63,788 nucleotides of DNA from a virus, in IMG/VR virus record IMGVR_UViG_3300005613_000061, positions 1-63,788 of that record. One strand, written 5' to 3'. Every line of letters starts with the position of its first letter. Within the stretch, counting starts at the first letter, position 1. Shown here one piece after another: positions 14,495 through 44,271 of this stretch. Both the position numbers and the translations under genes were made by a program. The notes below the pieces were generated by a model. It did no database searches and was not told the origin of the DNA. It was given only the letters and a program-made list of their open reading frames with translations.

Positions 14495-14697
14495 GTAAAT
14501 ATACATTAATAGGTGTAAACGGTAATGCGTTTAGTGTTATGGGTTATGTTACAAAGGCTATGAGAAATGAGGGGCTTACTAAAGAGGAAATTGCAGAATA
14601 TCAGGACAAGGCTATGGGAGGCAATTACAGTAACTTATTAAAAGTAAGTCAAGAAGTGGTAAATAAATTAAATGAAGGAGAAGATACAGATGAGTAA
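14491..14697 (+). CDS. conserved small phage protein
   Basis: 68 residues, MSKYTLIGVNGNAFSVMGYV. The pattern LIG-DGNAF-VM-YV...A-R-G with an ATM-SNYD-LL-like later part (AMGGNYSNLLKV) is one I recall from many phages and plasmids; role unknown. Starts at 14491 in an ATGA overlap. Confidence 0.65.
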   Translation: MSKYTLIGVNGNAFSVMGYVTKAMRNEGLTKEEIAEYQDKAMGGNYSNLLKVSQEVVNKLNEGEDTDE

Positions 14698-23148: not shown

Positions 23149-23309
23149 TGATAACTAATGAACAAATATTACAAGAAATACAAACTTTACATACTCTATT
23201 TGAAATTTTAAAAGTAGAGTATCCAATATGGTATGCATCTTTACGAGTCCCAGCTTTAGAATTAGAGCGAAGGGCCAAAAAATTAATAGGAGATATGAAC
23301 AATGGCTAG
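23148..23309 (+). CDS. small helical protein
   Basis: 53 residues, MITNEQILQEIQTLH, starting in a TAATG overlap with the portal gene and ending 8 bases inside the next one. Helical, with VEYPIWYASLRVPALE. Not recognised; the tight overlaps support it. Confidence 0.55.
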   Translation: MITNEQILQEIQTLHTLFEILKVEYPIWYASLRVPALELERRAKKLIGDMNNG

Positions 23310-25302
23310 TGAAATATATACTTTTGATACTCCGGGCGATTTTACTTACGATAGCGACAAGATAGAAGTTAGCGGAGGTTTAGCGAAATTAAAAGATTTA
23401 ACTCCCGCAGACGAAACTTTTTATGCTAGTTATAACGTTGATATAAATGGTAGTCGTGGTTTAGGCGTATTAACGGGAACAGCATATGGCGGAGCGACAG
23501 TTGATAGCGAAAAATTGGATTTAGCACATAATGATAGTAGATACGTAGATTACGATGCTGACTTAAATGCAGATAGTCAGCAAATTGGATGCATTAGATT
23601 TAAGGTCACCCCGAATTATACGGGCGCACCTTCTAGTGATAGATGGTTTTTTGCTATTTGTAAACAAAACAATAGTAAAAATAATTTAATACAATTAAGA
23701 CATTCCAAGTCTGGAGCGTATTTAAGACTTCATGTTTATGATAAAGATGGTGTTTTTGTAGTAGAGCATTTATGTGGACAATTTTTACCTACCGCAGATA
23801 CCGAATACGAAATTGAACTAAACTGGGATTTTACTACAGGTGCAACGAGAGTATTTGTTAACGGCGTACAAAATGGCTCTACGTGTACTAATACTTGTTT
23901 ACGAGATTCCGACATAGGTCTTTTTAGAATTGGAAATGACTATGATAAAGACGCAATCTCTGATTTTAAAATAGATTATTTTCAGGTTTTTTCTACAGTA
24001 CAACATACTACGGATTATACACCAGTAGCAATTCCAGAAACCATTTATTCCACAGATAAACCGACGATAAATCCGACGAGTTTATTAAATGCCCCGGATT
24101 TGTATTTATGGGACGAATTTACAGAAGTAGAAGGCGGAGGAAACGCCGGAACTTTGGCATATCAACTTTCAGATAACGGCACAGATTGGAAATACTGGAA
24201 TGGGAGCATATGGGCTGCCGTAGTAGGGGACAATTATAATTCTGCAAGTGTAGTTAGTGCTAATATAGCAAGTTTTCCAACCTCCGAAAAAAAGTTAATG
24301 TTTAAAGCCATTTTAATAAGTGACGGAGAACAAAAAGTAGAATTAGATACTATAACAATTATTTATGATAATGAGACTCCGCCAAATGTATACGCAGGAG
24401 CCGACAAAGATTGTTTAAAAGATGAAACATTTAAACCATTTTCTGACGCTGTAGTTTCAGATGTGGACGGCGATATTGAAAATGCTACTGCTTGGTACGA
24501 TATAGAAGGAAGCGGATATATACAAATTCCAAAAGGTGGCTACGGAACTTTACAAGATGCAATACGAAATTTTCAATATCAATATACAAATTTAGGAACT
24601 ATAACCAGTTCTTTAAAAATTATAGATGAACAAAGTAGAGAGACGTCCGACAATTTAGATGTTACAGTTAGTAATGTAACAGTTACATTTAATGTACGTG
24701 ATAATAACGGAAATCATCTTGCTAGTGTAGATTTTGTGGCAGGAGACGGCACACCTTCGCAGTCAAAAAGTTCGCCATTTACATATGATTACCCGCACAC
24801 AGACACATATTTTACAGCGACTTTTAATAAGACAGGATATAGCGAAGCGACAGCACAAGTAACTTCTACAGAACATGTGGAAAATATAGTTATGGCAAGT
24901 GAGATGACAGTTAGTTACCCTATAACAATAGAGATAGACGGCATTTCGAGTTCTTTGGGAGGAACCTTAGAAAATATTGTAAAAGGCGACTCTATAGATT
25001 TTACATGTACAGTAACAGATACAGATATTTCAGGATGGAAAATACGTTGTGAGATTTACGATAATGACGGCAATTCTATAAAGTTAGCAACCGCCAATAG
25101 TGGAGGAAGTGACGACCAAATAGAAATAACGGACTCAAGCGAAGGAGAATTTACAGTACATGTAGACAAAGAAGAAACCACAGACTTTAAAGATACGGCA
25201 AGAATAGAGATAGAATTTGAATTGACTGCCGAAAAATTAATAACAGGTTATCAGAGTATTATAGCTTTTAAAAGAGAACGAATAGAATGGGAAACACCCT
25301 AA
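23302..25302 (+). CDS. large virion-type protein with concanavalin/LamG-like and Ig-like domains
   Basis: 666 residues, no signal peptide (unlike the next four genes). Residues 1-230 have a jelly-roll layout with YEIELNWDFTTGATRVFVNG, as in LamG-like carbohydrate-binding folds. Residues about 240-350 include LYLWDEFTEVEGGG and YQLSDNGTDWKYWNG, 350-450 a PKD/Ig-like segment (PPNVYAGADKD, VVSDVDGD), then further Ig-like repeats. Probably a particle-attached carbohydrate-binding or decoration protein. AGGAGA precedes the ATG. Confidence 0.65.
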   Translation: MASEIYTFDTPGDFTYDSDKIEVSGGLAKLKDLTPADETFYASYNVDINGSRGLGVLTGTAYGGATVDSEKLDLAHNDSRYVDYDADLNADSQQIGCIRFKVTPNYTGAPSSDRWFFAICKQNNSKNNLIQLRHSKSGAYLRLHVYDKDGVFVVEHLCGQFLPTADTEYEIELNWDFTTGATRVFVNGVQNGSTCTNTCLRDSDIGLFRIGNDYDKDAISDFKIDYFQVFSTVQHTTDYTPVAIPETIYSTDKPTINPTSLLNAPDLYLWDEFTEVEGGGNAGTLAYQLSDNGTDWKYWNGSIWAAVVGDNYNSASVVSANIASFPTSEKKLMFKAILISDGEQKVELDTITIIYDNETPPNVYAGADKDCLKDETFKPFSDAVVSDVDGDIENATAWYDIEGSGYIQIPKGGYGTLQDAIRNFQYQYTNLGTITSSLKIIDEQSRETSDNLDVTVSNVTVTFNVRDNNGNHLASVDFVAGDGTPSQSKSSPFTYDYPHTDTYFTATFNKTGYSEATAQVTSTEHVENIVMASEMTVSYPITIEIDGISSSLGGTLENIVKGDSIDFTCTVTDTDISGWKIRCEIYDNDGNSIKLATANSGGSDDQIEITDSSEGEFTVHVDKEETTDFKDTARIEIEFELTAEKLITGYQSIIAFKRERIEWETP

Positions 25303-28738: not shown

Positions 28739-29152
28739 ATGAAAAAAATACTCGCAATGATTTTAATGACGGCATTAATAGCTACTTCATTGATTGCTAC
28801 ACCGTTGTATGCTCAAGAAGAAGATGTTTCCGAAAGCGGAGTAATTGACGTAGTAGAACCAGAGCCGACTCTTAATTATGTTTTTAGAGAAGTCAACTTA
28901 AGTAAATTGAGTAAGTTTATTGATTTAAGAAATGAGTTAAATGCGGCAAAGAACGTTTTAATTCAAGCTGCTATTGACATAAGTAAAGCCAAAGCAAAAG
29001 TACAAAAGAAATTTACAGAAGTTGCAGTGCAGTTAGATGGCGTCACAATAACTAAATTTCAAAATCGTTTTGCAGAAGTTGAGCAAATTAATGCTTCAAT
29101 AGACACTTTAATAGAGGAGTTAAACAATGACTGGAACGACTATAATGCGTAA
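28739..29152 (+). CDS. exported helical protein (signal peptide)
   Basis: 137 residues: MKKILAMILMTALIATS with LYA/Q cleavage near 25, an acidic linker (EEDVSESGVIDVVEPEPT), then a long helical region (LRNELNAAKNVLIQAAIDI, AEVEQINASIDTLIEELN). Behind AAAGGAGAAG. It could be a chaperone or stalk for the neighbouring exported fibre; no family recognised. Confidence 0.65.
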   Translation: MKKILAMILMTALIATSLIATPLYAQEEDVSESGVIDVVEPEPTLNYVFREVNLSKLSKFIDLRNELNAAKNVLIQAAIDISKAKAKVQKKFTEVAVQLDGVTITKFQNRFAEVEQINASIDTLIEELNNDWNDYNA

Positions 29153-29957
29153 GCTATTTTTAGCAATACTCATAAGTTTTGTTTTATGCTCTATCAATAT
29201 TTCACCGGTAGCTGCGGCAGGATTAGATGCAGACACTAATTTATTATTACATTTAAACGGGACTGATGGAAGTACTACTATGCCAGATAGTTCGATAACT
29301 AATAATAAAGGTAATGCTACAGTAACTCTTAATGCGGAATTAGACACCACATATAAGAAATTTGGAACGGCAGCATTATTATTAGATAACACAAATAGTT
29401 ATATATCCTACGCAGATAGTTCAGATTGGGATGTATTTGCCAACACGGTAGATGACTGGACTATAGACTTATGGGTAAGACATGCACAATTACCATCTAA
29501 TGAAGATTGGTACTTTTATCACGAGGAAGATTCATCTAATAACTGGAGATTTAGACGTGCCGGAGGCGTAGCAGGAGCAACAAATTTTCGTTTAAAAGTA
29601 GGAAATGTTTATACTCTATCTCTAAGTGGAGCCGGAATAACAGATACAGACTGGCATCATGTTTGTCTTGTAAAGAAAGGAAATGAATATGGGTTATACC
29701 TAGATGGCGTTCAAGGAGGATACGTACAAAGTAATGAGGTAGGAAATTTTACCGGCTCGTTATATATTGGTAAACCGGATACTACAAATTATTTTGATGG
29801 TAGTATAGATGAACCAAGAATACAGCACTCTAACTATTTTAATGCGGCACCTAATGTAGGTTTAACCGATACAATAACTGTACCGATAGCAGAGTATAGT
29901 GCAGATACGCCAACAAGTATGTCGCAATTAATAATAACAACTTTATTTGATTATTAG
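29127..29957 (+). CDS. exported LamG-like jelly-roll protein
   Basis: 276 residues, signal peptide with PVAAA/G cleavage near 30-31 (MRKLFLAILISFVLCS preceded by six residues; GAGGAG sits before ATG 29127). The mature part is a LamG/concanavalin-like domain: LLLHLNGTDGSTTM, DDWTIDLWVRH, WHHVCLVKKGNEYGLYLDG and GSIDEPRI are its classical strands. Such domains bind sugars or surface proteins. It overlaps the previous gene by 26 bases. It is probably exported to the cell surface or periplasm. Confidence 0.75.
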   Translation: MTGTTIMRKLFLAILISFVLCSINISPVAAAGLDADTNLLLHLNGTDGSTTMPDSSITNNKGNATVTLNAELDTTYKKFGTAALLLDNTNSYISYADSSDWDVFANTVDDWTIDLWVRHAQLPSNEDWYFYHEEDSSNNWRFRRAGGVAGATNFRLKVGNVYTLSLSGAGITDTDWHHVCLVKKGNEYGLYLDGVQGGYVQSNEVGNFTGSLYIGKPDTTNYFDGSIDEPRIQHSNYFNAAPNVGLTDTITVPIAEYSADTPTSMSQLIITTLFDY

Positions 29958-30252: not shown

Positions 30253-32016
30253 ATGACAACGAAGAGAGAAAGACTATACAGACTATTAGACATTATTGAA
30301 GAGTTTGAGGATAATATACGTTACGGTGTGGCGTACAGGCCCTTCAATAATGTTGTTTCATCTAAAAAAGAGGCGTTAGTTAATTACGACAAAGAAGAAG
30401 CAGAGATAATACGTCTTGTACGAAAGTACCAACGAGATTTAGTAGCCGCAGGTATTTCCTCACTTATTCAAGCCTTTAAGAAGAACATCACAAAAAATAC
30501 CGAATTATTTAAGGCATGGGACTACGAGATATTTCAAAAGTGGCAAGAAGATTTAGGCGCCAAGATTCCAGCCATACAAGAAAATTTTAAAAATAAAATG
30601 ATAGTTCCTTTAACTATATCATATGGCAAAGGTTACAACAAGGGTATAGAAGATTTGGGATTTGAGCCTATGCCGGAAAGAAGTTGGTTTTATCTTCCCG
30701 GACACGCAGTACCACGTTTGACCGCTCTAAAAATGTCATGGTACATTAGTAGAAAAGTATCATTAGACATGGTAGACATTATCATGGATGGTATGCGTGA
30801 AGGGTTAAATGGTAGAGAAATAGGAAGAAATTTACGTAAAGTAAGTACTGCTCCGAAAGTAGTAAACGTAGCTCCTAAAGTAGTTGATGGTGTCGTAACA
30901 AGAAAAGGTTACTCGTATACAATACCAAATAGACGCTGGACAGAAATGATAGGACGTACAGAAGCAAACCGTGCCACCACAATGGGAAGAGTAGAAAGTT
31001 ATAATACAAGTAAAATGGTTAAAAGTTTAGAACATATTACAGCAGGGGACAAACGAGTATGTCCAATATGTGAGCCATTAGACGGAAAAGTATATACATT
31101 AGCCGAAGCAGGAAAAGCAATTCCAGTTCATGTTATGTGTAGATGTACCGTAGAAGTACATGAGTATTACTCAGATGCGAAGCCAGAAAAGGCAGAAGAG
31201 AATTTTAAATTGGATGACGTTGATAGAACTATAAATACGGCTCCGATTAGCTGGGGTAATGCTCCATTGGTTCGCTGGAATACTAGAACTAGAACTTTAG
31301 CCGAAGATATGAAAAGATATGAACGACATTTAAAGGCACGGGGTCTTAACACCGTAAAAGGTCGGAAGCAAGTATATGAAAGATTAGAGAAGCAGTTATA
31401 TGATTTAAAAGTTACTCAGTTAAAGGGGTTTAAGAGTGCAGATATTAGAAGACTATATACAATGCACACAGTTAAAAATACACGACATGAGATAGCACGA
31501 AATATTATAGGAAAAGATAGAATAAAGCCTACCACTATTGAGTTAAAGAAAGAATATAAAAGAGTACCACGAGCATACGCTAGTACTACCACAAATAAAT
31601 TTAATAGATTTGGGGGTCAAGGATATGATAGCGCATATCAATTAGAATTATATAGTAAAAACTCATTTAGACCAGAAAGAACCGTGTTAAATTTACAACA
31701 CTCTATAGCACATGAAATGGGCCATCAACTACACTATGAATCTTCAAAAGATTTTATTAAAACATGGGGCGAAGAGTTTTTACGTACAAAGGAAAACGTA
31801 AAAGTTCTTAGTTGGAAGCCTTATATTATAGAAGGAGAGACTATAGGGAAACAGCCTATTATGAACCTAAGAGAGGCAGGATTTGTTACTAACTATGCCA
31901 CCGTAAAACATACGGAAGACTTTGCAGAATCTTTTGCTACATATGTATATAATCCGAATGATTTAAAATTGGCGAGTTCACGTAAGTATAAATTAATGAA
32001 AGATTTTGTAGAGTAA
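30253..32016 (+). CDS. MuF-type head morphogenesis protein fused to a zinc metallopeptidase
   Basis: 587 residues. Residues 1-310 are a phage Mu gpF/SPP1 gp7-like minor head protein: RTEANRATTMGRVESYN, then CPICEPLDGKVYTL (C270, C273) and PVHVMCRCTVE, its hallmark. The C-terminal part has HEMGHQLH (H487, E488, H491) and EDFAESFATYVYNP with further zinc ligand candidates, a zincin fold. MuF proteins carrying C-terminal effector domains are a known polymorphic architecture; if injected with DNA, the peptidase would act in the newly infected cell. Processing of head proteins is an alternative. Confidence 0.85.
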   Translation: MTTKRERLYRLLDIIEEFEDNIRYGVAYRPFNNVVSSKKEALVNYDKEEAEIIRLVRKYQRDLVAAGISSLIQAFKKNITKNTELFKAWDYEIFQKWQEDLGAKIPAIQENFKNKMIVPLTISYGKGYNKGIEDLGFEPMPERSWFYLPGHAVPRLTALKMSWYISRKVSLDMVDIIMDGMREGLNGREIGRNLRKVSTAPKVVNVAPKVVDGVVTRKGYSYTIPNRRWTEMIGRTEANRATTMGRVESYNTSKMVKSLEHITAGDKRVCPICEPLDGKVYTLAEAGKAIPVHVMCRCTVEVHEYYSDAKPEKAEENFKLDDVDRTINTAPISWGNAPLVRWNTRTRTLAEDMKRYERHLKARGLNTVKGRKQVYERLEKQLYDLKVTQLKGFKSADIRRLYTMHTVKNTRHEIARNIIGKDRIKPTTIELKKEYKRVPRAYASTTTNKFNRFGGQGYDSAYQLELYSKNSFRPERTVLNLQHSIAHEMGHQLHYESSKDFIKTWGEEFLRTKENVKVLSWKPYIIEGETIGKQPIMNLREAGFVTNYATVKHTEDFAESFATYVYNPNDLKLASSRKYKLMKDFVE

Positions 32017-33727: not shown

Positions 33728-34390
33728 ATGATAATTCAAGTACTAGAACATAGTATACGAAAAACTGAGCCATGTATATTGTTGAATAAGAACATTTTAA
33801 TAAATATGCCAGCCCTAACAAAAAGTATCGAGGTTGACCACATACTACTTACTCATGCTCATCAAGAAAATATAAAAGGCTTTAATCAAATACTAAAAAA
33901 AGAAAAGGGATTAACTCAGTTATACGTACATAAAGACCACGAACACGCCTTATTACACAATACTGCGAATTTAACCGACAAATGCATAATCAAAAATATA
34001 ACTCCAAATAAGAAATTTAAAATAGACGGCATAACGATACAGCCAATACATGTACGTCATACGGTACAAAAGAGTCATTCAGATATATGCCTCGCATTTC
34101 TTATAGATAAACGCATAATGTACTGTAGTCCCTGTAACGATATACCAAAAAAGAATTTAAAATATTTTAAAAATTTAAATGTACTGATTCTAGACGGCGG
34201 TTATCGAGGAAAAGCCAAATACGATGACCACCTATCCATGAATAAGATATTAAGTATTGTTAAAGATTTTAATATAAAATACCTATATTTTCTCGGAACA
34301 CACAAAGACTATAGCATAAAAGGCAAAATGCGTAATAGAAAGACGTATATAGATACGTTATTTACTGGAGATATAATAAAAGTAAAATAA
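33728..34390 (+). CDS. metallo-beta-lactamase-fold protein with altered metal motif
   Basis: 220 residues. LLTHAHQENIKGF takes the place of the HxHxDH motif but reads HAHQEN, so the Asp-His pair is Glu-Asn. A His near 111 (IHVRHTVQ), an Asp in LDGGYRGKAKYDDH and a final GTHKDYS occupy later motif positions. The order resembles PhnP-like phosphodiesterases. With two metal ligands changed, activity may be lost or shifted. Its place next to the prohead protease is unexplained. Confidence 0.7.
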   Translation: MIIQVLEHSIRKTEPCILLNKNILINMPALTKSIEVDHILLTHAHQENIKGFNQILKKEKGLTQLYVHKDHEHALLHNTANLTDKCIIKNITPNKKFKIDGITIQPIHVRHTVQKSHSDICLAFLIDKRIMYCSPCNDIPKKNLKYFKNLNVLILDGGYRGKAKYDDHLSMNKILSIVKDFNIKYLYFLGTHKDYSIKGKMRNRKTYIDTLFTGDIIKVK

Positions 34391-34452: not shown

Positions 34453-36060
34453 ATGTATCCAGTAGAGTTTAGATTTTTAACTCAAAATATTACAGTAAAG
34501 CAAGCAAAGAAGAAAGAAAAGGGATTTTATGTTAGCGGGTACGCATCAGTACATAGCATAGTTGATAGGCAGGAGGAGATAGTTACAAAAGAGGCACTAG
34601 AGAAGGCCGTAGATGGTTTGTTAAAAGACGGCAGTACCTTATTTTTTAATCACAATTATGACCAGCCAATAGGAAAAATAGAAAAAGCAACAGTAGATAA
34701 AAAGGGTTTATTTATTGAGTCATATATTTCAAAAACTCGCCCAGATATTTCAGGCTTAATTGAAGAAGGTATTTTAAATAAATTTTCTATCGGCGGAAAA
34801 GTTATTGCAGCAGAGACCGTACGAAATCGACAAACAGGCGCCGAAATTATAAAAATTTTAGAGATGGAATTATACGAAGTTTCGTTAGTAGGCGTACCTG
34901 CAAATGCAAAGGCGCAGGTCGTAGATTATGTTCTTAAAAGTGCAGTACAGAAAGCTACTATTAGCGATAAAGAACATTTAAACTCACAGGAGGCAAGTGA
35001 AATGAAAGGTAAAGAAAAATCAATACGTGACGGCATTGATAAGGTTATCGAAGAACAGGTGAAAGATGAAGTTGCAGCAGAAGAAGCAGCCGCAGTTGAG
35101 GAAGAAATTAAAGAAGAGGAAACGGTAAAAGAAGAAGTCAAAGAAGAGAAGAAAGAGGAGGAAGTCAAGGAAGAAGAAGTCAAAGAAGAAGTTAAGGACG
35201 AAGTTAAGGACGAAGAGGTTAAAGAAGAAAAAGAAGAGGAAGTCAAGGAAGAAGTTGTAGAGGAAAAAGAAAAAGAGGAAGAAGAAGTTAAGGACGAGAA
35301 ACAAGAAGAAGACGTAGAAGATGTGGTAGAAAAAGTCAGTGAAGAGGAAGTAGACATGGCTAAAGCAATGAATGACAAACTTAACGACATTCATAAAGCC
35401 GTTCTAGGCAACAACCAGCCACGTTTTACTTTACTTGATAAAGATGTTACAGAGGTTATAAAAGATTTTGATAAATTAACTATAGGTGACGAAATAGTTT
35501 TAAAGGTATATTGTATTGTTGCTGAAAAAGCAGAAGCCGAAAATGCCAACGAAGAAAATACCTATAAGTTTTTAACGTTACGTACAGTAGAGGCCGAAAA
35601 AGTTGGTGAAACAAAGAAGAAAGATGAAGACTCAGAAACTACGAAGCACGACGAAGAAAAGGCTGAAGAGACGAAAAAAGCACGTGGCGAAGGACAAGGT
35701 AACGGCGGAGAGCCGCAAGGAGATGGCGGAGCAGATATTTGCGAATGTCCTGAATGTGGTACCACTATTCCACATGAAAAAGGAGTCCCTTGTAGTGATG
35801 TAAAGTGTCCAGAATGCGGAACAGTGATGCAAGGAAAAAATAAGAGCACCAAAGCTATTACAAAAGAAGATAAAGGAAAGAGAAAAGGGATAAATACGGA
35901 TAACTTAAACGAAAATGAGAAAACACTATCAAAGAAGCTAAACGGCAAAACAGTTGAAGAGGTTATGAACGATTCAACATTATACGATAGTTTAGACGAA
36001 GAGACACAAAAAGAAGTTATGTATTTGTATAAAAGTAATTTTTTTACTAATAGAAAATAA
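34453..36060 (+). CDS. prohead protease fused to scaffold-like region and zinc ribbon
   Basis: 535 residues. Residues 1-165 are an HK97-type prohead serine protease: FFNHNYDQPIGK with H67 and FSIGGKV with S112, then LYEVSLVGVPANAKA. Residues about 190-305 are a nearly pure Glu/Lys/Val coil, probably the scaffold. A further domain (about 315-390) and CECPECGTTIP...CPECG, a zinc ribbon near 435-460, follow. The self-cleaving protease-scaffold fusion is known in other phages; the zinc ribbon is unusual. It lies directly before the capsid gene. Confidence 0.88.
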   Translation: MYPVEFRFLTQNITVKQAKKKEKGFYVSGYASVHSIVDRQEEIVTKEALEKAVDGLLKDGSTLFFNHNYDQPIGKIEKATVDKKGLFIESYISKTRPDISGLIEEGILNKFSIGGKVIAAETVRNRQTGAEIIKILEMELYEVSLVGVPANAKAQVVDYVLKSAVQKATISDKEHLNSQEASEMKGKEKSIRDGIDKVIEEQVKDEVAAEEAAAVEEEIKEEETVKEEVKEEKKEEEVKEEEVKEEVKDEVKDEEVKEEKEEEVKEEVVEEKEKEEEEVKDEKQEEDVEDVVEKVSEEEVDMAKAMNDKLNDIHKAVLGNNQPRFTLLDKDVTEVIKDFDKLTIGDEIVLKVYCIVAEKAEAENANEENTYKFLTLRTVEAEKVGETKKKDEDSETTKHDEEKAEETKKARGEGQGNGGEPQGDGGADICECPECGTTIPHEKGVPCSDVKCPECGTVMQGKNKSTKAITKEDKGKRKGINTDNLNENEKTLSKKLNGKTVEEVMNDSTLYDSLDEETQKEVMYLYKSNFFTNRK

Positions 36061-36091: not shown

Positions 36092-37063
36092 ATGGAAAAA
36101 ATGGAAAAAGCAAAACGTGATTTTCTAAAATCTGTGTTGGTACCGGATAATACCGTATCTCCAGCATCAGCGTATTTGCCAAAGCCTATTGCAGACGAAA
36201 TGATTAAAGTTATCGAAGAGACGAACTGGATGCGTAAGATTTTTCGGGGCATTTTTGTACCGGGTCGTACCTTTACCGTTCCTACGGTTAACTATGATTA
36301 TGATAACGTTAAGCAAGCAGCTATTGGCGCAGCTCCAGGTGGTCTTTCTAATACTGCTCCGTCAGTTGGAAGTATTGTGTTAGAACCAGGCAAACTTGCT
36401 GCAAAAGGCGCTTTACAGGTTGATGACATTGATGATTCAAGTATTGATGTTGTTGATATGTTGCTTGAGAACTTTGCAATAGCATTTGCTAGAGCAGAGG
36501 AACGTGCTATGGTTCTTGGTACTGAACGTGACAGAACGTCAACTGATATTTTGAAAGTATTTCTAGGTCTTTATGAAATAGCAGCTAATCATTCAACTAC
36601 TACGGCAGTAACATATGACCCTAGTACCGCCTATGCGGTTGTTGATGCAGTTAGTGAAGCTATTAAAGAACTTGGAGTGTATGGACGAAATAAAAAAGAT
36701 TTAGTTCTTTTAGTCAGTTCTACGATGGCAGATTATATGCGTAAAGATAAATCTTTACGTTATGATATGACCGGTCACAAAAATGTTATGGACCAAGGGG
36801 ACCTTCCTAAAGTTTTTGGTGTTGATGTACTTGAAACTACTTATCTTGATGGTAAGGGTGAAGGCACAAACAAAGCCTGCGGAATTTTAGTTCCTAAATC
36901 TGAAGCAGTGATTGGTGACCGTCGTAAGTTCAAGGTAGTTCCTGAGAACGACCCTGAAAATGACGCTGTAAATTATTATGCTTATGAATCTATCGACTTT
37001 CAGTTGTTACATCGTACTGGAACCGATTATGACGCAATTGTCCTCATAGACCAAGTGAGTTGA
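36092..37063 (+). CDS. major capsid protein, HK97 fold
   Basis: 323 residues. FVPGRTFTVPTVNYDYDN, an E-loop region, LVLLVSSTMADYMRKD, the P-loop style GVDVLETTYL and IDFQLLHRTGTDYDAIVLI at the end match HK97-like capsid proteins, and it follows the protease. Codon choice (CGT, GTT, CTT) differs from neighbouring genes rich in AGA and TTA, as expected for a very highly expressed gene. AAAGGAATGAG precedes the ATG. A terminator follows. Confidence 0.93.
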   Translation: MEKMEKAKRDFLKSVLVPDNTVSPASAYLPKPIADEMIKVIEETNWMRKIFRGIFVPGRTFTVPTVNYDYDNVKQAAIGAAPGGLSNTAPSVGSIVLEPGKLAAKGALQVDDIDDSSIDVVDMLLENFAIAFARAEERAMVLGTERDRTSTDILKVFLGLYEIAANHSTTTAVTYDPSTAYAVVDAVSEAIKELGVYGRNKKDLVLLVSSTMADYMRKDKSLRYDMTGHKNVMDQGDLPKVFGVDVLETTYLDGKGEGTNKACGILVPKSEAVIGDRRKFKVVPENDPENDAVNYYAYESIDFQLLHRTGTDYDAIVLIDQVS

Positions 37064-37162: not shown

Positions 37163-37732
37163 ATGTTTAGTAAAGTTTGTTTAATATGTGGAAATCCACA
37201 TAATAATAAAAAATACTGTTCAAGGGCATGTACAAATACAGCCACCAAAAAAGGAACAGTACTTACCGAAAACCACCGCACCAAAATAGCTAAATCTATG
37301 CAAGGGAAAAATAAGAGTAAAGAAAATCCCTTTTATAGTAAATGTCACTCTAAAAAAACTCGTAAGTATATAGGTGACTGCCAGCGTGGAGAAAAACATC
37401 ATTACTATACCGAAAAAAATACTTTATTTAAAGCAAACGGCTATATTAAAATTAATATAAGAGAGGAACATCCGTTTTTAAGAAAGGGTATAATGTCATA
37501 TCATAGATTCGTTATGGCAAATCGTTTAGGACGTAAATTACTCAAGACGGAGGTTGTACATCACAAAGACTGTAACCCTTTAAATAACGATATTAAAAAT
37601 CTAATGTTATTTAAAAATAAATCTGAACATAATAAATATCATGCAAAATTTAATAGAATTGCTGCCAAACTGTTAGGAAATAAGACAGCCAAAGAACTTA
37701 TACAGACATATCATATATTAGAGAAGGAATAG
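37163..37732 (+). CDS. free-standing HNH homing endonuclease with NUMOD3-like region
   Basis: 189 residues. An N-terminal zinc knuckle (CLICGNPH, YCSRACTN), a NUMOD3-like DNA-binding stretch (HRTKIAKSMQGKNKSKENPF, residues about 38-57), then the HNH core TEVVHHKDCNPLNNDIKNL near 131-150. It cuts DNA to spread itself; its insertion right behind the capsid gene is typical. It carries an internal GGGTATAAT box (37486), probably by chance. Confidence 0.85.
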   Translation: MFSKVCLICGNPHNNKKYCSRACTNTATKKGTVLTENHRTKIAKSMQGKNKSKENPFYSKCHSKKTRKYIGDCQRGEKHHYYTEKNTLFKANGYIKINIREEHPFLRKGIMSYHRFVMANRLGRKLLKTEVVHHKDCNPLNNDIKNLMLFKNKSEHNKYHAKFNRIAAKLLGNKTAKELIQTYHILEKE

Positions 37733-37734
37733 AA

Positions 37735-40104
37735 ATGATAAGATTGTCAACAGAATTAGACATATATTATAAGAGTAAAGACAAAAACAAGTTTGTACGA
37801 CAAGTTTCATCTACAGTAATAACCCCATTTAAAGCATTCCCTCTATTGTTGATATTTGCAAGTCACATATTTAATCCAGAATATAATGAGAAACTTATTA
37901 TAGAAGCCATAAAAAAGAATTTTATTATTATATACTTCTGCGACAAAATACCAGATGATGCAATTATCCATGAAAGTATCATTTATATAAAAGCCAAGTG
38001 GAGATACTTTGATACTAGTATTTTTAAAGACATAAATCAATTTTCCGCCGTACATGGTGTAAATAAAAAGGGAGAAAAATTAGCTCTACAATATGCTAGA
38101 GTATTTAGTAAGAAATATATACGTAACTCCAATGAACTCTCGGAGATTGTAAAACATCATCAAGATATACAAGAAAATGTTACTATATTGTTTGATACTA
38201 TTTTTGAATGTGGCGACAGAGGTCTGGGAGATATTTTATTAACCACGCCTATAGTAACGGAATTAAAGAAAAAATTTAACGCCAGTATAACTTACGCATG
38301 TAGACCAAAGGCAGCCGAACTTCTACAGAATAACCCGGACATTGATAAAGTTATAACTAAATACAGCGACCTAGAGAAGTTACAATTTACATATCATTTA
38401 CCGCTCATTAGACATACTGAAAATTATAAAGTATCTCGTAATAGACAATGCCGAACAGATAGCTTAGCCGACCTATTTATGGTTACGCTACCAAAAGATA
38501 ATGTGCTACCAAAAATTTATCTCACACCAAAAGAAATACAAAATGCCAATCGGTTAGTAAATAAAGTACATAAGATTAAATTAGGTATAAATATAGAGGC
38601 AACATCATCCGCAAGACGTTGGACATACGGATATTTATTAGAGTTATTCAAATTATTAGGAGAAGAAGATTCCAAATATGAATTTTATTTATTTGGGTCC
38701 GGCGACAGAATGAAAATAACGGGTATTCCAAAATATATACATAACTTTATCGGGAAATTAACTTTAAGAGACTCCATAGCAGTAATGAGCAAAATGGACA
38801 TGGCATTAACTACTGATTCATTATACAGTCATGTAGCTGGAGCATTTAAAATACCGCAAGTTTGCATCTATACTACAATACCGGCAGAATGGCGAAATAA
38901 GTATTATAAAAGTATAGGGGTACAAGGGACGACGAAATGTAGCCCATGTTGCGACTTTCAATTTCTAACTAAGGAGGACTATGATAAGTGTGATAGATTT
39001 GGAGTGCCGCCTTGTGTCAAGAGCATAACGCCCGATACGATAATGAAAAATTTAGAGATATGTAAACGCCGATATAATGTAGATACTTATTCCACAAAAG
39101 AGACTATACTTATTAATAGAAGTAGTGGGCTCGGAGATATATTAATGTTAACATCAGTATTGCATGACCTACGTCTAAAAGAGAAGGACGCCTTTATAAC
39201 ATTAAGAACAAATTGTCCAGACCTATTTATAGGGAACTCTGACGTGGACGAAATACTTACCGGCACATATATACCCGATAAGGATTTACAAACTAGATTT
39301 TATGATTATGACCGAATATACAATTTTGATTACTGTTTAGAGAGTTATGGAGTAGCTGGAAAACTTGGCAAAATAAGTGATAAGGATTATATGACTGTTT
39401 CACGTATAGATTTATTATATAACTGGGCCAAGATGAAATGTCCGAAAAATCCGAAATTGTATTATTTCGTTACTGAGTCTGAGAAAAGGCGAGTTGAGAA
39501 AATGCTAAAAACTTTATGGGGAAAGAAAACAGTAACATACGTATTAAACTGTACTTCACCATATAGAACCTATCCGATAAAAGAAAGTTTAAAAGTTATA
39601 GAGGAACTCTCCAAAACTCATAATGTGTTCATCATAGGAAATAGCATTACAATGTGGGGAGAGGACCATGAATTTAATAAAGTATACTATGAAGTTCTTA
39701 ACAGATTAAATGGGAGATATGTCGTAGACTTAGTAGATAAAACGGAGTTACGTCTAGCCTGCGCAATTATAGAGCATAGTGATTTAGTAATTACTCCTGA
39801 CACAGGCATGCTTCATGTAGCCAATGCGGTAGATACGACATGTTTGGCACTATTCGGCAATATTGACCCGTATCTACGAGTTAAGTATTATAAAAATACT
39901 TCAACTATCTATAAGAATATCTCATGTGCAGAAGGGTGCGGTGACAGAGGAAATTTTATGAGAAGTGGAAAAATAATCTGTCCCGACTTTTATAGAGTAA
40001 AGGAGCCTGAAAAGAGAATTGGAGCAATATGTATGAGAGCCATAACTTCAGAAGAGATTATACAGAAATCAAAAGAATTACTACAGAATGGAGGTACACT
40101 ATGA
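37735..40104 (+). CDS. tandem heptosyltransferase-like (GT9) glycosyltransferase
   Basis: 789 residues. About 150 unrecognised residues come first, then two copies of a GT9-like fold: GDRGLGDILLTTPIVTELKK near 160-180 with SKMDMALTTDSLYSHVAGAF, and SSGLGDILMLTSVLHDLR near 464 with HSDLVITPDTGMLHVANAVD. Both show the GLGD and DTG/DSL signatures of ADP-heptose:LPS heptosyltransferases, which transfer sugars to lipopolysaccharide core. One polypeptide with two such domains is rare. It opens a run of surface-sugar genes and overlaps the next gene by 4 bases. Confidence 0.8.
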   Translation: MIRLSTELDIYYKSKDKNKFVRQVSSTVITPFKAFPLLLIFASHIFNPEYNEKLIIEAIKKNFIIIYFCDKIPDDAIIHESIIYIKAKWRYFDTSIFKDINQFSAVHGVNKKGEKLALQYARVFSKKYIRNSNELSEIVKHHQDIQENVTILFDTIFECGDRGLGDILLTTPIVTELKKKFNASITYACRPKAAELLQNNPDIDKVITKYSDLEKLQFTYHLPLIRHTENYKVSRNRQCRTDSLADLFMVTLPKDNVLPKIYLTPKEIQNANRLVNKVHKIKLGINIEATSSARRWTYGYLLELFKLLGEEDSKYEFYLFGSGDRMKITGIPKYIHNFIGKLTLRDSIAVMSKMDMALTTDSLYSHVAGAFKIPQVCIYTTIPAEWRNKYYKSIGVQGTTKCSPCCDFQFLTKEDYDKCDRFGVPPCVKSITPDTIMKNLEICKRRYNVDTYSTKETILINRSSGLGDILMLTSVLHDLRLKEKDAFITLRTNCPDLFIGNSDVDEILTGTYIPDKDLQTRFYDYDRIYNFDYCLESYGVAGKLGKISDKDYMTVSRIDLLYNWAKMKCPKNPKLYYFVTESEKRRVEKMLKTLWGKKTVTYVLNCTSPYRTYPIKESLKVIEELSKTHNVFIIGNSITMWGEDHEFNKVYYEVLNRLNGRYVVDLVDKTELRLACAIIEHSDLVITPDTGMLHVANAVDTTCLALFGNIDPYLRVKYYKNTSTIYKNISCAEGCGDRGNFMRSGKIICPDFYRVKEPEKRIGAICMRAITSEEIIQKSKELLQNGGTL

Positions 40105-41105
40105 AAAACGTATTGTACTTATCAGCGTGGCACAGAGAACGTTATAATATAGGCGATAACGTTTATTTACAAGGAAGTATATCTTTACTTACTGAAGCCA
40201 TAGGAGAACATTTTATTTTGGAATGCAATCTTGAACAATTTGTTGAAGACATAAACAACGTAGAAAAAATATTAGGCTTAGATTTAGATTTAATAGTAAC
40301 TACAGGAGCCCCATATCTATATTCTAATTTTCAAGTAGCCTGGCAGTATGAATTTTTAAAAAGACTTAATGTAGGCTATCCAGATGTGCCTAAAATAGCT
40401 CTAGGTTTAGGAGGATGTTCGGGACTATCAAATAACTATTTTAATAATCGTATAGCATTAGACGCCGCAAAAGAGATTTTTGGACAATTTGATTTAATAG
40501 TAGCCAGAGAGCCGTTAACGGCACAGTTTTTAGAACTTGCAGGAGTCTCGTGCAAAATATTACTAGATAGCGCAGTATTTTTTCCTATACAAGATTACAT
40601 TAAAGAACTGGATTTAAAGAATACTCAAGAAAAACCGGTATTTTGTTATTTTGACTATAGAGCAGGAATTTCAAGAGGAGATATTACAGAATTTGAAGCA
40701 CAACAAATAGATAATATGTATAAAGAGATTTATGAAAAGTATAATCCAATAACATATTGCGTTAATGAAGCCGAAGTAGAACCAGCCAAAAAATTAGGAA
40801 TTGAAGCCAAATGGTTGTGGCACTTTGAAGATATTTTACCGTTATTAGCACAGGCAACGTTTTTAATTTCAGCACGAGTACATCAAGCCACATTGGCGAA
40901 ATTATTAGATAAAAATAGCTATGTAATACCGTTTGATATAAGATACTTATGTAGTACGGCTATAGGCGTTCAGCCAGTGTTTCCATATCAACAGTTGGAA
41001 TTTAAAGCAGGCATATGTAATATATTTTATAAAGATTTAATTAATAAAACTAGAGTTATTATAATAAACGAGATAAGAAAGGTAATGACTAATGGAACAT
41101 GTTAG
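40101..41105 (+). CDS. polysaccharide pyruvyl transferase-like protein
   Basis: 334 residues from the ATG at 40101 (ATGA overlap, GGAGG upstream). MKNVLYLSAWHRERYNIGDN, LDLIVTTGAPYLY, KIALGLGGCSGLSNN, REPLTAQFLELAGV and ISARVHQATLAKLLDK are the successive elements of the PS_pyruv_trans family, including the final R-H region. Such enzymes add pyruvate to surface sugars. The acceptor is unknown. It is overlapped by the next gene by 14 bases. Confidence 0.78.
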   Translation: MKNVLYLSAWHRERYNIGDNVYLQGSISLLTEAIGEHFILECNLEQFVEDINNVEKILGLDLDLIVTTGAPYLYSNFQVAWQYEFLKRLNVGYPDVPKIALGLGGCSGLSNNYFNNRIALDAAKEIFGQFDLIVAREPLTAQFLELAGVSCKILLDSAVFFPIQDYIKELDLKNTQEKPVFCYFDYRAGISRGDITEFEAQQIDNMYKEIYEKYNPITYCVNEAEVEPAKKLGIEAKWLWHFEDILPLLAQATFLISARVHQATLAKLLDKNSYVIPFDIRYLCSTAIGVQPVFPYQQLEFKAGICNIFYKDLINKTRVIIINEIRKVMTNGTC

Positions 41106-41628
41106 AATTGTAAAAATAAGTACTCTTTCGGAGACCACACGTATAAAAAAAGAGGCGTTAAAGTTTATTGATGAGAGTATGAACGGATTAGATATAGGGA
41201 CGCAAGGTATGCCTATCTTTGATAGTACAATCTCCATGGATTTACGTAACAGTAAAAAGGGCGTAGTCAACTTAAGAGGTGATGCTAGAAATCTTAAATG
41301 GTTTAACGACGGCGTATTTGATTATGTTTTTAGTAGTCACTGTTTTGAGGATATGAGACCAGAAGAAAAACCGGCAGTACTGAAAGAATGGGCACGAGTC
41401 GTACAAAAGGGAGGATATGTTTTATTGTATCTTCCCGATGAACAAGCGTATAGAGCATATTGTAAAAAAGCAGGAACATTAAATAATGCTGCACACACGG
41501 ATAAAAATTTCAGTATAAATACAGTAAGAGACATTGTTAAAGAACATTGTTTTAATATATTAGAGGAAATTTACGCTATAGAAAAACATGAGCCATATGG
41601 ATTTTTTCTAGTATATAGAAAGATATAA
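41092..41628 (+). CDS. SAM-dependent methyltransferase (type 11-like)
   Basis: 178 residues. NGLDIGTQGMPIF is the SAM-binding motif I position, FDYVFSSHCFEDMR motif II and LKEWARVVQKGGYVLLYLPDE motif III of class I methyltransferases. The context suggests a sugar or lipid-linked sugar acceptor. Confidence 0.8.
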   Translation: MEHVRIVKISTLSETTRIKKEALKFIDESMNGLDIGTQGMPIFDSTISMDLRNSKKGVVNLRGDARNLKWFNDGVFDYVFSSHCFEDMRPEEKPAVLKEWARVVQKGGYVLLYLPDEQAYRAYCKKAGTLNNAAHTDKNFSINTVRDIVKEHCFNILEEIYAIEKHEPYGFFLVYRKI

Positions 41629-41630
41629 TT

Positions 41631-42440
41631 ATGAATTTTGAGCATTTAATAATAGGGGGATGTTATAGAAGTGGCACCTCAATAGTTACAGTAATGTTGG
41701 CAAAACATTCTCAAGTATTACTTACAAATGAACTATGGAACTATAGGTCACTTGATGTAGTAAACACAAAGTTACAGAATTTGAGTAATAAGTATCCGTA
41801 TATAGGAGACAACACATCCACTATAGCACGAGATACCTTGGGCGACAACTTTAGAGGTTTCTTAGATTCTTTTGACAGAGATAAAATAACTAGTATATAT
41901 GATTTGTATTCTAGATTAATAAAGTTTTCCAATAAGTATCCAAGATATTGCGGAGACAAGGTACCAGAATATATACTGGATATAGAGAATATTACTAAAA
42001 TATATAGTAATTCTAGACTAATTGTATGTATACGAGACGGAAGAGACGTTATAGAATCACAGATAAAAAGATATAAGTATTTTATGGACATAAACGGTAC
42101 TGTGAGAAATCATTGGTGGACAAAGAGAACGATAGAAGATTGCATAAATGATACGGGAAGAAATTGGTTACACTATATGAATGTATGGGACATCACCAAA
42201 AAGAATTTAAAAGTACCGTATTATGAACTATTTTATAAAAATCTAATTCTTAATCCAGAAGACGAGGCAGAAAGATTGTCAAAGTTTTTAAATATAGAAG
42301 AGTTAGAGCTATTTAAGATTTTTAAATCTAATATAAATAGTGATACATATAACTCATGGAAATATACAATACCGAATATTAATAGTAAACTGCCTAGCGC
42401 ATGGAAGCAGATGCTAAAAAAATACGGATTCGAGGTTTAG
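41631..42440 (+). CDS. sulfotransferase
   Basis: 269 residues. GGCYRSGTSIVTVML (9-23) is the 5'-PAPS phosphosulfate-binding loop, and IVCIRDGRDVIESQ near 131-144 the 3'-phosphate-binding segment of the sulfotransferase family. It should move sulfate from PAPS to a carbohydrate or other acceptor. In a phage this points to charge modification of the host surface or virion sugars. Confidence 0.82.
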   Translation: MNFEHLIIGGCYRSGTSIVTVMLAKHSQVLLTNELWNYRSLDVVNTKLQNLSNKYPYIGDNTSTIARDTLGDNFRGFLDSFDRDKITSIYDLYSRLIKFSNKYPRYCGDKVPEYILDIENITKIYSNSRLIVCIRDGRDVIESQIKRYKYFMDINGTVRNHWWTKRTIEDCINDTGRNWLHYMNVWDITKKNLKVPYYELFYKNLILNPEDEAERLSKFLNIEELELFKIFKSNINSDTYNSWKYTIPNINSKLPSAWKQMLKKYGFEV

Positions 42441-42441
42441 A

Positions 42442-43038
42442 ATGAGAGATTACAGTCAATACGGAGAATATAAAATAATTAGAGAGTTTTTTGAAAATAA
42501 TGTGCCAGAACATAAAATAGTTATAGATGTAGGCGCCTGCGGACAAGAACTATCTAATAGTTATAATTTGATAAAAGATGATAATTGGAGAGGCATATTA
42601 TTAGAGCCAGAGCCAGAGAACTATGCAAAGTTATTAGCGTTATATTCAGATATTGACAAAGCTACGATATTGAATAGAGCAATCTCAAACTATTCAGGCA
42701 AAGGGAAAATTTACATACATGATAAACGAGGGCATCACTCTTTAAGTAGAAAGACCGGCAGATATACGGAAATAACTGTTTGTAGATTAGCTTGCTTATT
42801 GAAGAGACACAACGTACCACATAATTTCGGTCTTTTGACCGTAGATGCGGAGGGAGAAGATGAGAAAATAATTACAGACCTATTAGAGACCAGTTGTTAT
42901 AGACCCACGGCTATAATACATGAGAAATTACATGGGAAGCCGATTATACAGAACATATTTAAGAAACACAATTACAGAGTATACGCCGAAACAAGAGGTA
43001 ATATCATTTATACAATAGAAAATAAACTAGTAAAATAG
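42442..43038 (+). CDS. FkbM-family methyltransferase
   Basis: 198 residues. DYSQYGEYKIIREFF, VIDVGACGQELSNS (SAM loop), GILLEPEPENYAKL, LNRAISNYSGKGKIYI and LLTVDAEGEDEKI are the FkbM signature elements. Such O-methyltransferases modify sugars of surface glycans. It is followed by 53 bases with an inverted AT-rich element ahead of the next gene. Confidence 0.85.
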   Translation: MRDYSQYGEYKIIREFFENNVPEHKIVIDVGACGQELSNSYNLIKDDNWRGILLEPEPENYAKLLALYSDIDKATILNRAISNYSGKGKIYIHDKRGHHSLSRKTGRYTEITVCRLACLLKRHNVPHNFGLLTVDAEGEDEKIITDLLETSCYRPTAIIHEKLHGKPIIQNIFKKHNYRVYAETRGNIIYTIENKLVK

Positions 43039-43091
43039 TATTAAAACTACTATAATAAAATAGTATCTTTATAATAAGGTAATGTATATCT

Positions 43092-43667
43092 ATGAACATA
43101 TTACTATTAGTAAGTAAACAGGATGCAAAAAGTAAGTTATTTAATAAGAGTTTACTTGAATTTACATTGAGTAGACTGGAGCCTAAACATAGAGTCTTTG
43201 TATATAGTTTAGACTCTACTATAGAACAAAGAGTAGGTTCTAGATTTTTTTCGGCAAAGAATAATATGGATGCCTTAAGGAAATTTGCCGATAAACAAGA
43301 TGTTTTTATGGTTATTTCACGATTAGCCATATGTGACATAAATTTTGATAATTTAATTAATTATCATAATAACCATGATAAATCAGTAACGTTAGTATGT
43401 AAGAATTTCGTCAAAGATAAATCCATACCTATTTATCAGTTAGACGATACGAAGTCTGTTACGGCGGTTACTCGTCGAAGGTTCGCTGATTGCGGAATTT
43501 ATCTCTTTAAAAATAAAGTGAATCTTAATAGTTATAAAAATATATATACTATAATTACAGATGCTATAAAGAATAAAATATTAAAGGGGTTTGTTCACAA
43601 GGGGTACTGGTGGACGGCAGCAAATATAAGGAGAAGAGATAATGGCAACACTTTTAACACGGGCTGA
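43092..43667 (+). CDS. sugar nucleotidyltransferase-like protein, degenerate
   Basis: 191 residues. VFMVISRLAICDINFDNLIN and FADCGIYLFKNKV fit two conserved strands of the sugar nucleotidyltransferase fold, but the start (MNILLLVSKQDAKSKLF) lacks the G-rich nucleotide-binding signature. It may be a truncated or binding-only relative. It ends 26 bases inside the first connector gene. Confidence 0.5.
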   Translation: MNILLLVSKQDAKSKLFNKSLLEFTLSRLEPKHRVFVYSLDSTIEQRVGSRFFSAKNNMDALRKFADKQDVFMVISRLAICDINFDNLINYHNNHDKSVTLVCKNFVKDKSIPIYQLDDTKSVTAVTRRRFADCGIYLFKNKVNLNSYKNIYTIITDAIKNKILKGFVHKGYWWTAANIRRRDNGNTFNTG

Positions 43668-44271
43668 AATAGCTAGAATCTTAGGAATAGACGACGAAGC
43701 AGATATACCACGAGATATAGTAGACTGGGCAGTATTGCAGGTTGAGAAGTCTTTACATAAGAATTATGAAGAAGTTGACACGACAGAGGAATTTTTCTTT
43801 ACTAGAGCAGAAGATGTACAAACGGCGTTATATTTAAAGAAGACTAATGTGACCGTTTCCAAAGTAGAACGTAGAGACCTCGAAGCAGACGAATGGACGG
43901 AAGTAGACTCAACCTATTACTATACCGATTCAGAAGCAGGCGTAGTGTTATTTACGACTTCAGCATATTTACATACTAGGTACCGAGTTACGTATAGTTA
44001 TGGCGGGGACGAAGCCACCAATCTAGAAAAGAAATTACATTTTTTATTCGTATTAGATTACTTACAGAAGTATAAATCAGATGTATTAAGCGAGGGTGCC
44101 AGTGTTAGCAGCGACATTAAAAAGGAAGTAATAGGAGATTATAGTATTGAGTATGCCGTATCTAGTTCTTCTTCATCTTCGGCACAGACAAAAGTAGAAA
44201 GAGATATAGAAGATTTAATGACGTTACTTGGAGGCAACTTTGGAGATTACGAAAATACGGAGATACTTTAA
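43642..44271 (+). CDS. head-tail connector / adaptor protein
   Basis: 209 residues, MATLLTRAEIARILG. A helical start (DIVDWAVLQVEKSLH), a strand-rich centre (VEVDSTYYYT-like) and a helical end is the layout of the HK97 gp6/SPP1 gp15 adaptor group. Position at the head-tail boundary supports this. ATAAGGAGAAG precedes the ATG. Confidence 0.7.
   Translation: MATLLTRAEIARILGIDDEADIPRDIVDWAVLQVEKSLHKNYEEVDTTEEFFFTRAEDVQTALYLKKTNVTVSKVERRDLEADEWTEVDSTYYYTDSEAGVVLFTTSAYLHTRYRVTYSYGGDEATNLEKKLHFLFVLDYLQKYKSDVLSEGASVSSDIKKEVIGDYSIEYAVSSSSSSSAQTKVERDIEDLMTLLGGNFGDYENTEIL

What the first reader, a model, noticed from the sequence alone, without database searches (positions are those of the whole stretch)
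37735..43667. Surface-sugar modification island between capsid and connector genes
A tandem GT9-like glycosyltransferase, pyruvyltransferase-like, two methyltransferases, a sulfotransferase and a nucleotidyltransferase-like gene are inserted between capsid and connector genes, overlapping each other like an operon. All are enzyme types that alter lipopolysaccharide or capsule. In the virion block they would be expressed late or with particle genes, so they could change host receptors to stop loss of progeny, or decorate the virion. A phage sulfotransferase and pyruvyltransferase together are rare to my knowledge.
Basis: partly seen in the sequence, partly recalled or inferred. Interest (0 to 1): 0.72.

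Follow-up and report, generated by a model that had tools for sequence, protein, structure and literature searches.

The report
Phage sugar-enzyme cassette beside capsid gene
An uncultured tailed phage and its relatives keep a block of sugar-modifying enzyme genes locked between two genes for building the virus head, most likely to put an unusual decorated sugar on the virus particle, or else on the host surface; the idea is testable but not shown.

Summary
In detail: window 37735-43667 carries a two-domain GT9 glycosyltransferase, a polysaccharide-pyruvyl-transferase-like gene, two methyltransferases (Methyltransf_11, FkbM) and a PAPS-type sulfotransferase, all over Pfam cut-offs. The last gene has a sugar-nucleotidyltransferase fold but has lost its catalytic elements. 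Related IMG/VR contigs show a structured locus, not random insertions. The next gene after the capsid gene (homing endonucleases aside) is this GT9 in 7 of 7 contigs; the gene just before the connector is the degenerate nucleotidyltransferase in 4 of 4. Between these fixed ends lies cargo that varies: none (L009), a pyruvyltransferase set (L005-L007), or the full set (window, L003; without Methyltransf_11 in L012). The HNH gene is a separate insertion. Island genes are under purifying selection like the structural genes. A strong hairpin follows the capsid gene in 7 of 7. No island protein has a clear transmembrane segment, so this is not a gtr-type seroconversion locus. Best reading: cytosolic enzymes build a short methylated, sulfated, possibly pyruvylated glycan on a virion protein (capsid favoured); host-surface modification remains the main rival. 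No relatives in INPHARED; host unknown. Novelty: new variant of a known kind (phage-encoded virion or surface glycan modification).

The parts
36092..37063 (+). major capsid protein (HK97-type, PF05065); fixed left neighbour
   Evidence: 54.9 bits, cut-off 24.2; conserved in 5 relatives, 69-93% identity
37111..37141 (+). hairpin just after the capsid gene, with at most a weak T-run; likely leaky terminator or mRNA 3' stem
   Evidence: hairpin after capsid in 7 of 7 contigs with different sequences; fold z from -1.5 (window) to -6.3; not found by the consensus terminator scan. Limits read from the sequence
37163..37732 (+). HNH/NUMOD3 endonuclease; separate mobile insertion, not part of the cassette
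   Evidence: PF13392, 32.3 bits; absent in L003, L004, L007, L009; different NUMOD3 proteins in L005, L006
37735..39081 (+). GT9A half: about 148-residue N-terminal region plus GT9 domain with 4 conserved Cys; fixed left end of the cassette
   Evidence: present in 7 of 7 contigs
39082..40104 (+). GT9B half: second GT9 domain fused to GT9A; distant duplicate (23% identity)
   Evidence: tandem form in window and L003, and begun in L004
40101..41105 (+). polysaccharide pyruvyl transferase-like enzyme
   Evidence: PF04230, 46.3 bits; start at 40101 supported by L003:8367
41092..41628 (+). SAM-dependent methyltransferase (Methyltransf_11)
   Evidence: 38.9 bits; present in L003, absent from L012
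41631..42440 (+). PAPS-type sulfotransferase (Sulfotransfer_3)
   Evidence: 70.2 bits; nearest solved relative CurM sulfotransferase 4gbm; GxxRSGT-like and RDGRDVxES motifs kept in 3 of 3
42442..43038 (+). FkbM-family methyltransferase (Methyltransf_21)
   Evidence: 39.7 bits; TIGR01444 over its cut-off
43092..43667 (+). degenerate sugar-nucleotidyltransferase fold, probable pseudoenzyme; fixed right end of the cassette
   Evidence: present in 4 of 4 contigs that hold the connector
43642..44271 (+). connector-like head gene; fixed right neighbour, overlaps the preceding gene by 26 nt
   Evidence: position before the head-completion gene (PF05521); conserved in L003, L009, L012

Best explanation
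The locus is a virion-glycan cassette of an uncultured tailed phage. Late in infection the genes are read with the head genes, behind a leaky hairpin that separates the very abundant capsid message from the enzymes. The GT9A/GT9B protein transfers sugars, perhaps heptose-like, to an acceptor; the Methyltransf_11, FkbM, sulfotransferase and pyruvyltransferase-like enzymes then methylate, sulfate and pyruvylate that short glycan in the cytosol. The acceptor is most likely a virion protein, with the neighbouring capsid protein favoured. The degenerate nucleotidyltransferase would serve as a sugar-nucleotide binding or partner subunit, not as a donor-making enzyme. GT9A and the pseudoenzyme are the constant ends, and lineages swap the decorating enzymes between them, giving different surface chemistries. 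Shown: gene identities, fixed ends, variable middle, selection, hairpin, loss of catalytic elements. Inferred: late expression, cytosolic glycan assembly, acceptor, donor sugar, benefit (hiding from, or binding to, surfaces).
For: Capsid-GT9A adjacency in 7 of 7 contigs and pseudoenzyme-connector adjacency in 4 of 4. The capsid-based scan found 5 relatives without using GT9, and all 5 have GT9A next (with 13, 14, 28, 30, 31). The connector-based scan found 3, all with the pseudoenzyme next. Capsid and GT9A distances correlate over 15 pairs of 6 contigs (Pearson 0.89, Spearman 0.48). Island genes are under purifying selection, dN/dS 0.056-0.153 against 0.075-0.193 for the structural and neighbouring genes tested. 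No clear transmembrane segment in the island proteins, so every step can be cytosolic. GT9A carries four Cys that align with the four iron-ligand Cys of TibC, a protein heptosyltransferase (PMC4358343 passages). Precedents: mycobacteriophages glycosylate capsid and tail tube (PMC12363180 passages); chloroviruses build methylated capsid glycans with their own enzymes (PMC7826918 passages).
Against: No virion or glycan data exist. GT9 scores are best for LPS heptosyltransferases, though far below their cut-offs. The four-Cys finger is not specific to protein glycosylation: 2 of 12 non-phage GT9-type controls, a near-identical Bacteroidaceae pair, have a similar one, and the sequence match to TibC is weak (E 0.43). 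Adjacency to the capsid gene may only reflect late expression, which would also suit host-surface modification. The Pearson correlation of distances is driven by two close pairs (Spearman 0.48, p 0.07).
Confidence: 0.48

Rival explanations
1. Host-surface modification: the late-expressed enzymes alter LPS core or capsule precursors at the inner membrane face, changing the receptor so that progeny do not stick to debris or to infected cells (superinfection exclusion).
For: GT9 half-domains score best with LPS heptosyltransferases I-III and match the WaaF/WaaC folds; a PS_pyruv family match; weak hit of the pyruvyl gene to CsaB (E 0.012); a Bacteroides GT9 with a similar Cys finger sits beside galactofuranose genes.
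Against: No flippase, polymerase, initiating transferase or clear membrane protein in the island. All LPS-heptosyltransferase scores lie far below their equivalog cut-offs. The fixed position beside capsid and connector is not required by this model.
Confidence: 0.3
2. Accessory-gene hot spot: the capsid-connector gap tolerates insertions of selfish or accessory genes, and the sugar enzymes serve assorted functions with no common pathway.
For: Variable middle (L009 none; L005-L007 other pyruvyltransferase-family genes; L006 an unrelated 178-aa and a 308-aa gene), and HNH/NUMOD3 genes inserted in 3 of 7 contigs.
Against: Ends are constant, order is kept in window, L003 and L012, and selection is purifying.
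Confidence: 0.15
3. Modification of another intracellular target (a nucleotide sugar, small molecule or host protein), for example to counter a defence system.
For: FkbM, Methyltransf_11 and Sulfotransfer_3 families act on many small molecules (family knowledge); CurM, the nearest solved sulfotransferase, acts in polyketide synthesis (recalled).
Against: GT9, pyruvyltransferase and sulfotransferase types together point to a glycan. Untested side: no cassette protein was scanned against the defence library (PADLOC).
Confidence: 0.07

Closest known systems
Mycobacteriophage virion glycosylation (Che8, Corndog, Myrna; Freeman et al. 2023, known to me through passages of PMC12363180; the paper itself is not held)
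   Same: Phage-encoded glycosyltransferases; proposed virion acceptor (capsid or tail tube there)
   Different: Here GT9 type with decorating sulfo-, methyl- and pyruvyl-transferase-like enzymes, fixed between capsid and connector; tblastn of the GT9 proteins to INPHARED phages gave no match
Chlorovirus PBCV-1 capsid glycan enzymes (A064R, A111/114R; PMC7826918 passages)
   Same: Fused glycosyltransferase domains plus methyltransferase making a capsid glycan without host organelles
   Different: Eukaryotic virus, different families; homology not tested
BAHT protein heptosyltransferases TibC/AAH (PMC4358343 passages)
   Same: GT9 core; four Cys align with the TibC iron-finger Cys 339/342/358/370; extra N-terminal domain
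   Different: TIGR04414 scores 16.6 bits in one relative against a cut-off of 200 and is not listed for the window; neighbours are head genes, not an autotransporter gene; finger also in 2 of 12 controls
Prophage gtrABC seroconversion loci (recalled)
   Same: Phage-borne sugar genes
   Different: No clear membrane protein in the island, no Gtr family match among the scanned island proteins
Sugar nucleotidyltransferases: GMPPB, RmlA, GlgD
   Same: Fold: VIA Z 13.8, rmsd 3.3 A over 165 residues to 7d73_F; weak GlgD profile match
   Different: Glycine-rich loop, metal Asp and C-terminal Asp missing in 4 of 4; 191 residues only

Membership tests
GT9 glycosyltransferase | PF01075 over the curated cut-off | tested here: met
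   97 bits, two stretches, cut-off 22; both halves over the cut-off
GT9 glycosyltransferase | GT-B fold like WaaC/WaaF | tested here: met
   Z 17.4, rmsd 5.3 over 229 residues to 1psw; model pLDDT 69.6, so moderate
GT9 glycosyltransferase | Asp in the N-lobe LGD motif and D-x-x-x-x-H in the C-lobe (recalled) | tested here: met
   invariant in 7 of 7 (D166, D361, H366)
BAHT protein O-heptosyltransferase (TibC/AAH) | TIGR04414 equivalog score | tested here: not met
   at best 16.6 bits (L006), cut-off 200
BAHT protein O-heptosyltransferase (TibC/AAH) | four-Cys iron finger | tested here: inconclusive
   four Cys aligned, but 2 of 12 controls share a similar pattern; metal binding not testable
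BAHT protein O-heptosyltransferase (TibC/AAH) | N-terminal beta-barrel of about 97 residues | tested here: inconclusive
   GT9A has a 148-residue mixed strand/helix N-terminal region; TibC matches start at model residue 148
PAPS sulfotransferase | Sulfotransfer_3 match and PAPS-binding motifs (recalled) | tested here: met
   (70.2 bits, cut-off 27); motifs kept in 3 of 3
Polysaccharide pyruvyl transferase | PF04230 over the cut-off | tested here: met
   46.3 bits, cut-off 25.3; the CsaB equivalog is not met (15 bits, cut-off 213.1)
Sugar nucleotidyltransferase (active) | fold | tested here: met
   model pLDDT 73.6
Sugar nucleotidyltransferase (active) | glycine-rich loop and metal-binding Asp residues (recalled) | tested here: not met
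   loop missing against E. coli RfbA and Asp sites replaced in 4 of 4
gtrABC seroconversion locus | membrane proteins GtrA/GtrB/GtrC (recalled) | tested here: not met
   largest 19-residue hydropathy mean 1.69 among island proteins; no Gtr family hits
Virion glycosylation system | glycan on purified virion protein | not testable with these tools
   needs mass spectrometry
Virion glycosylation system | homology of the GT to Che8 gp110 / Corndog gp38 | tested here: inconclusive
   no tblastn match in 50,697 phage records; presence of those phages in the collection was not checked, no fold comparison made

The most novel reading that the evidence does not exclude
A capsid-locked, exchangeable glycan cassette: a constant GT9 and a constant dead nucleotidyltransferase bracket a swappable set of sulfating, methylating and pyruvylating enzymes, so that one phage lineage diversifies the chemistry of its own capsid surface much as bacteria diversify O-antigens. 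It would include a sulfated virion glycan and a pseudoenzyme specialised for it.
Probability: 0.28. Interest if true: 0.78.

Novelty: new variant of a known kind. Interest (0 to 1): 0.52.

Why it matters
The role of sulfotransferases in phages is stated to be unclear (PMC10580990). Here one sits in a conserved, ordered set next to the capsid gene, which makes a specific prediction (a sulfated, methylated glycan on the virion or host) directly testable by mass spectrometry. If the acceptor is the capsid, phages would have a modular way to change the surface chemistry of the particle, which affects diffusion, adsorption and recognition. The constant dead nucleotidyltransferase at the right end is a puzzle of its own.

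Tried and rejected
Rejected: (1) HNH gene as part of the island: absent in L003, L004, L007, L009, while L005 and L006 carry different NUMOD3 proteins. (2) The four-Cys finger as proof of a BAHT-type protein glycosyltransferase: first attractive, then weakened by controls: 2 of 12 non-phage GT9-type proteins have C-x2-C-x7-C-x6-C. One control (L020) does not match PF01075, so the set is loose; it and 9 others have no such finger. (3) Donor synthesis by the last gene: catalytic elements missing. (4) gtr-type seroconversion: no clear membrane protein. (5) Chance ORFs: excluded by family matches and selection.

Led nowhere: INPHARED tblastn of capsid, GT9, pyruvyl, sulfotransferase and last gene (no match); FkbM gave one weak match, H21; portal gave only distant matches of at most about 26% identity in the 20 rows shown, all from Gram-positive phages, too broad for a host call. 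Two genome-contig scans found no prophage or host. PHROGs listed no family for the pyruvyl, sulfotransferase or last gene. Rfam: nothing. The consensus promoter and terminator scan was not above shuffles in a useful way (72 against 62.6, sd 7.8; 5 against 6.1, sd 2.7). PDB sequence searches with the pyruvyl and FkbM alignments: none. The GT9A N-terminal region was not folded or searched alone. dN/dS for FkbM could not be computed (saturated), and dS is high (0.56-1.57) elsewhere, so values are approximate. No PADLOC search was made.

Literature: 9 searches; passages only of PMC12363180, PMC8418041, PMC4358343, PMC10580990, PMC3118219, PMC11309003, PMC7826918, PMC9723584, plus the outline of PMC4358343. 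PMC8418041 had nothing that bears on this locus, and PMC3118219 and PMC11309003 only a sulfotransferase mention each.
Full report
What is there. The window is a virus record of 63,788 bases. Genes run protease (34453-36060), capsid (36092-37063), HNH endonuclease (37163-37732), then GT9 tandem, pyruvyltransferase-like, Methyltransf_11, Sulfotransfer_3, FkbM, nucleotidyltransferase-like, connector-like (43642) and head completion (44275), all on the + strand. Except for the nucleotidyltransferase-like and connector-like genes, each named enzyme, the capsid and the protease pass the Pfam cut-off. Joins are tight: 4-, 14- and 26-nt overlaps and short gaps.

Relatives. They give 7 distinct related contigs: L003, L004, L005, L006, L007, L009, L012. 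L003 has the whole island in the same order without the HNH gene (proteins 70-88% identical). L004 has capsid then GT9 tandem and ends there. L005, L006 and L007 have a single GT9A followed by different pyruvyltransferase-family genes: the L005 one is 22% identical to the window's by local alignment, the L006 one shares only the family, and the L007 one is cut off by the contig end after 101 residues, resembles L005's by eye and was not scored as this family. L006 also has two unrelated genes. L009 has GT9A directly followed by the nucleotidyltransferase-like gene and the connector. L012 has pyruvyl, sulfotransferase, FkbM, nucleotidyltransferase-like, connector, with no Methyltransf_11; its contig starts at the pyruvyl gene.

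Fixed ends, variable middle. Of 7 contigs (window included) that hold the capsid end, all 7 have GT9A as the next gene apart from a HNH/NUMOD3 gene in 3 (window, L005, L006). Of 4 that hold the connector (window, L003, L009, L012), all 4 have the nucleotidyltransferase-like gene just before it. Ascertainment: the capsid scan does not depend on GT9 and found 5 relatives, all with GT9A; the connector scan does not depend on the island and found 3, all with the nucleotidyltransferase-like gene. No relative without the ends was found, so the state before the cassette is unknown, and patterns derived from few sequences reach only near relatives.

Selection and expression. Between window and L003, dN/dS (Nei-Gojobori, approximate) is 0.068 for GT9, 0.065 pyruvyl, 0.056 Methyltransf_11, 0.153 sulfotransferase and 0.079 for the last gene, against 0.099 capsid, 0.091 connector and 0.193 head completion; FkbM was saturated. 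Sulfotransferase and FkbM are the most divergent island proteins (71 and 70% identity). A hairpin directly follows the capsid gene in 7 of 7 contigs, with different sequences. It folds better than dinucleotide shuffles in 6 of 7 (z -2.6 to -6.3) and weakly in the window (z -1.5, 16 of 200 shuffles reach it). T-runs are short in most, so I call it a leaky terminator or 3' stem; this is inference. In the window the HNH gene sits between hairpin and GT9.

GT9A. The predicted structure (pLDDT 69.6) matches heptosyltransferases (1psw Z 17.4; 2h1h Z 15.8) and TibC (Z 14.3, rmsd 5.0-5.2). Its four invariant Cys (402, 405, 419, 427) align with TibC 339, 342, 358, 370, which bind iron in that protein glycosyltransferase (PMC4358343 passages). 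The gap between the second and third Cys is 13 in 6 of 7 and shorter (7) in L007; the gap between third and fourth is 7 in 6 of 7 and 10 in L009. But the match is weak (E 0.43), the TIGR04414 model does not accept the protein, and 2 of 12 control GT9-type proteins from cellular sources have a similar finger. I therefore treat it as a hint only. GT9B is a distant duplicate (23%).

The last gene. It folds as a sugar nucleotidyltransferase (best VIA match 7d73_F, Z 13.8, rmsd 3.3 over 165; Foldseek top matches mostly RmlA-type), but in 4 of 4 sequences the glycine-rich loop is missing against E. coli RfbA, the metal Asp region is replaced, and the final motif that ends in W-x-D or WLD in the active enzymes reads GYWWT, GYFWT here (motif roles recalled). 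It is kept under selection, hence a likely pseudoenzyme with a binding or scaffolding role.

Function. The set lacks any clear membrane protein, flippase or polymerase, so a prophage seroconversion type is not met. A cytosolic build-up of a short glycan on a virion protein needs no more than what is present plus host donors, and the capsid is the constant neighbour. Host-surface modification at the inner membrane face stays possible. I give 0.48 and 0.30.

Context in print. Mycobacteriophages glycosylate capsid and tail tube proteins (PMC12363180 passages); chloroviruses make capsid glycans with fused transferases and a methyltransferase (PMC7826918 passages); a methyltransferase FkbM gene is among the 100 most transcribed genes of a group of large phages (PMC9723584 passages); phage sulfotransferase function is called unclear (PMC10580990 passages). 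Searches for the combination returned no matching phage locus in their listings.

Noticed in passing
L006 1997-4681; L007 7479-9878: The prohead protease gene carries an AAA ATPase domain (PF00004) in the same reading frame; the window and L005 proteases do not match it.
   Followed up: partly
window 37163-37732; L005 3161-3808; L006 5733-6419: Different NUMOD3/HNH-type genes sit at the same capsid-GT9 junction in 3 of 7 contigs: a hot spot for homing endonucleases.
   Followed up: partly
window 33728-34390: A metallo-beta-lactamase-fold gene (PF12706) lies just upstream of the protease in the window and in L003-L007; function unknown.
   Followed up: no
window 23302-25302 and 29127-29957: Two laminin-G/concanavalin-like lectin-domain genes near the portal and head genes (the first is below the Pfam cut-off), possibly carbohydrate-binding virion parts.
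   Followed up: no
window 30253-32016: Mu-F-type head protein fused to a zinc-peptidase-like domain (Peptidase_Mx1).
   Followed up: no
L020 775-1758; L021 886-1872: Enterobacterial plasmids carry GT9-like proteins next to hybrid sensor kinases that share a TIxPExRxKYY-like motif with GT9A; only L021 passes the GT9 model.
   Followed up: partly
window 14672-15760 and 499-1707: RNA ligase and DNA ligase genes in the same phage.
   Followed up: no
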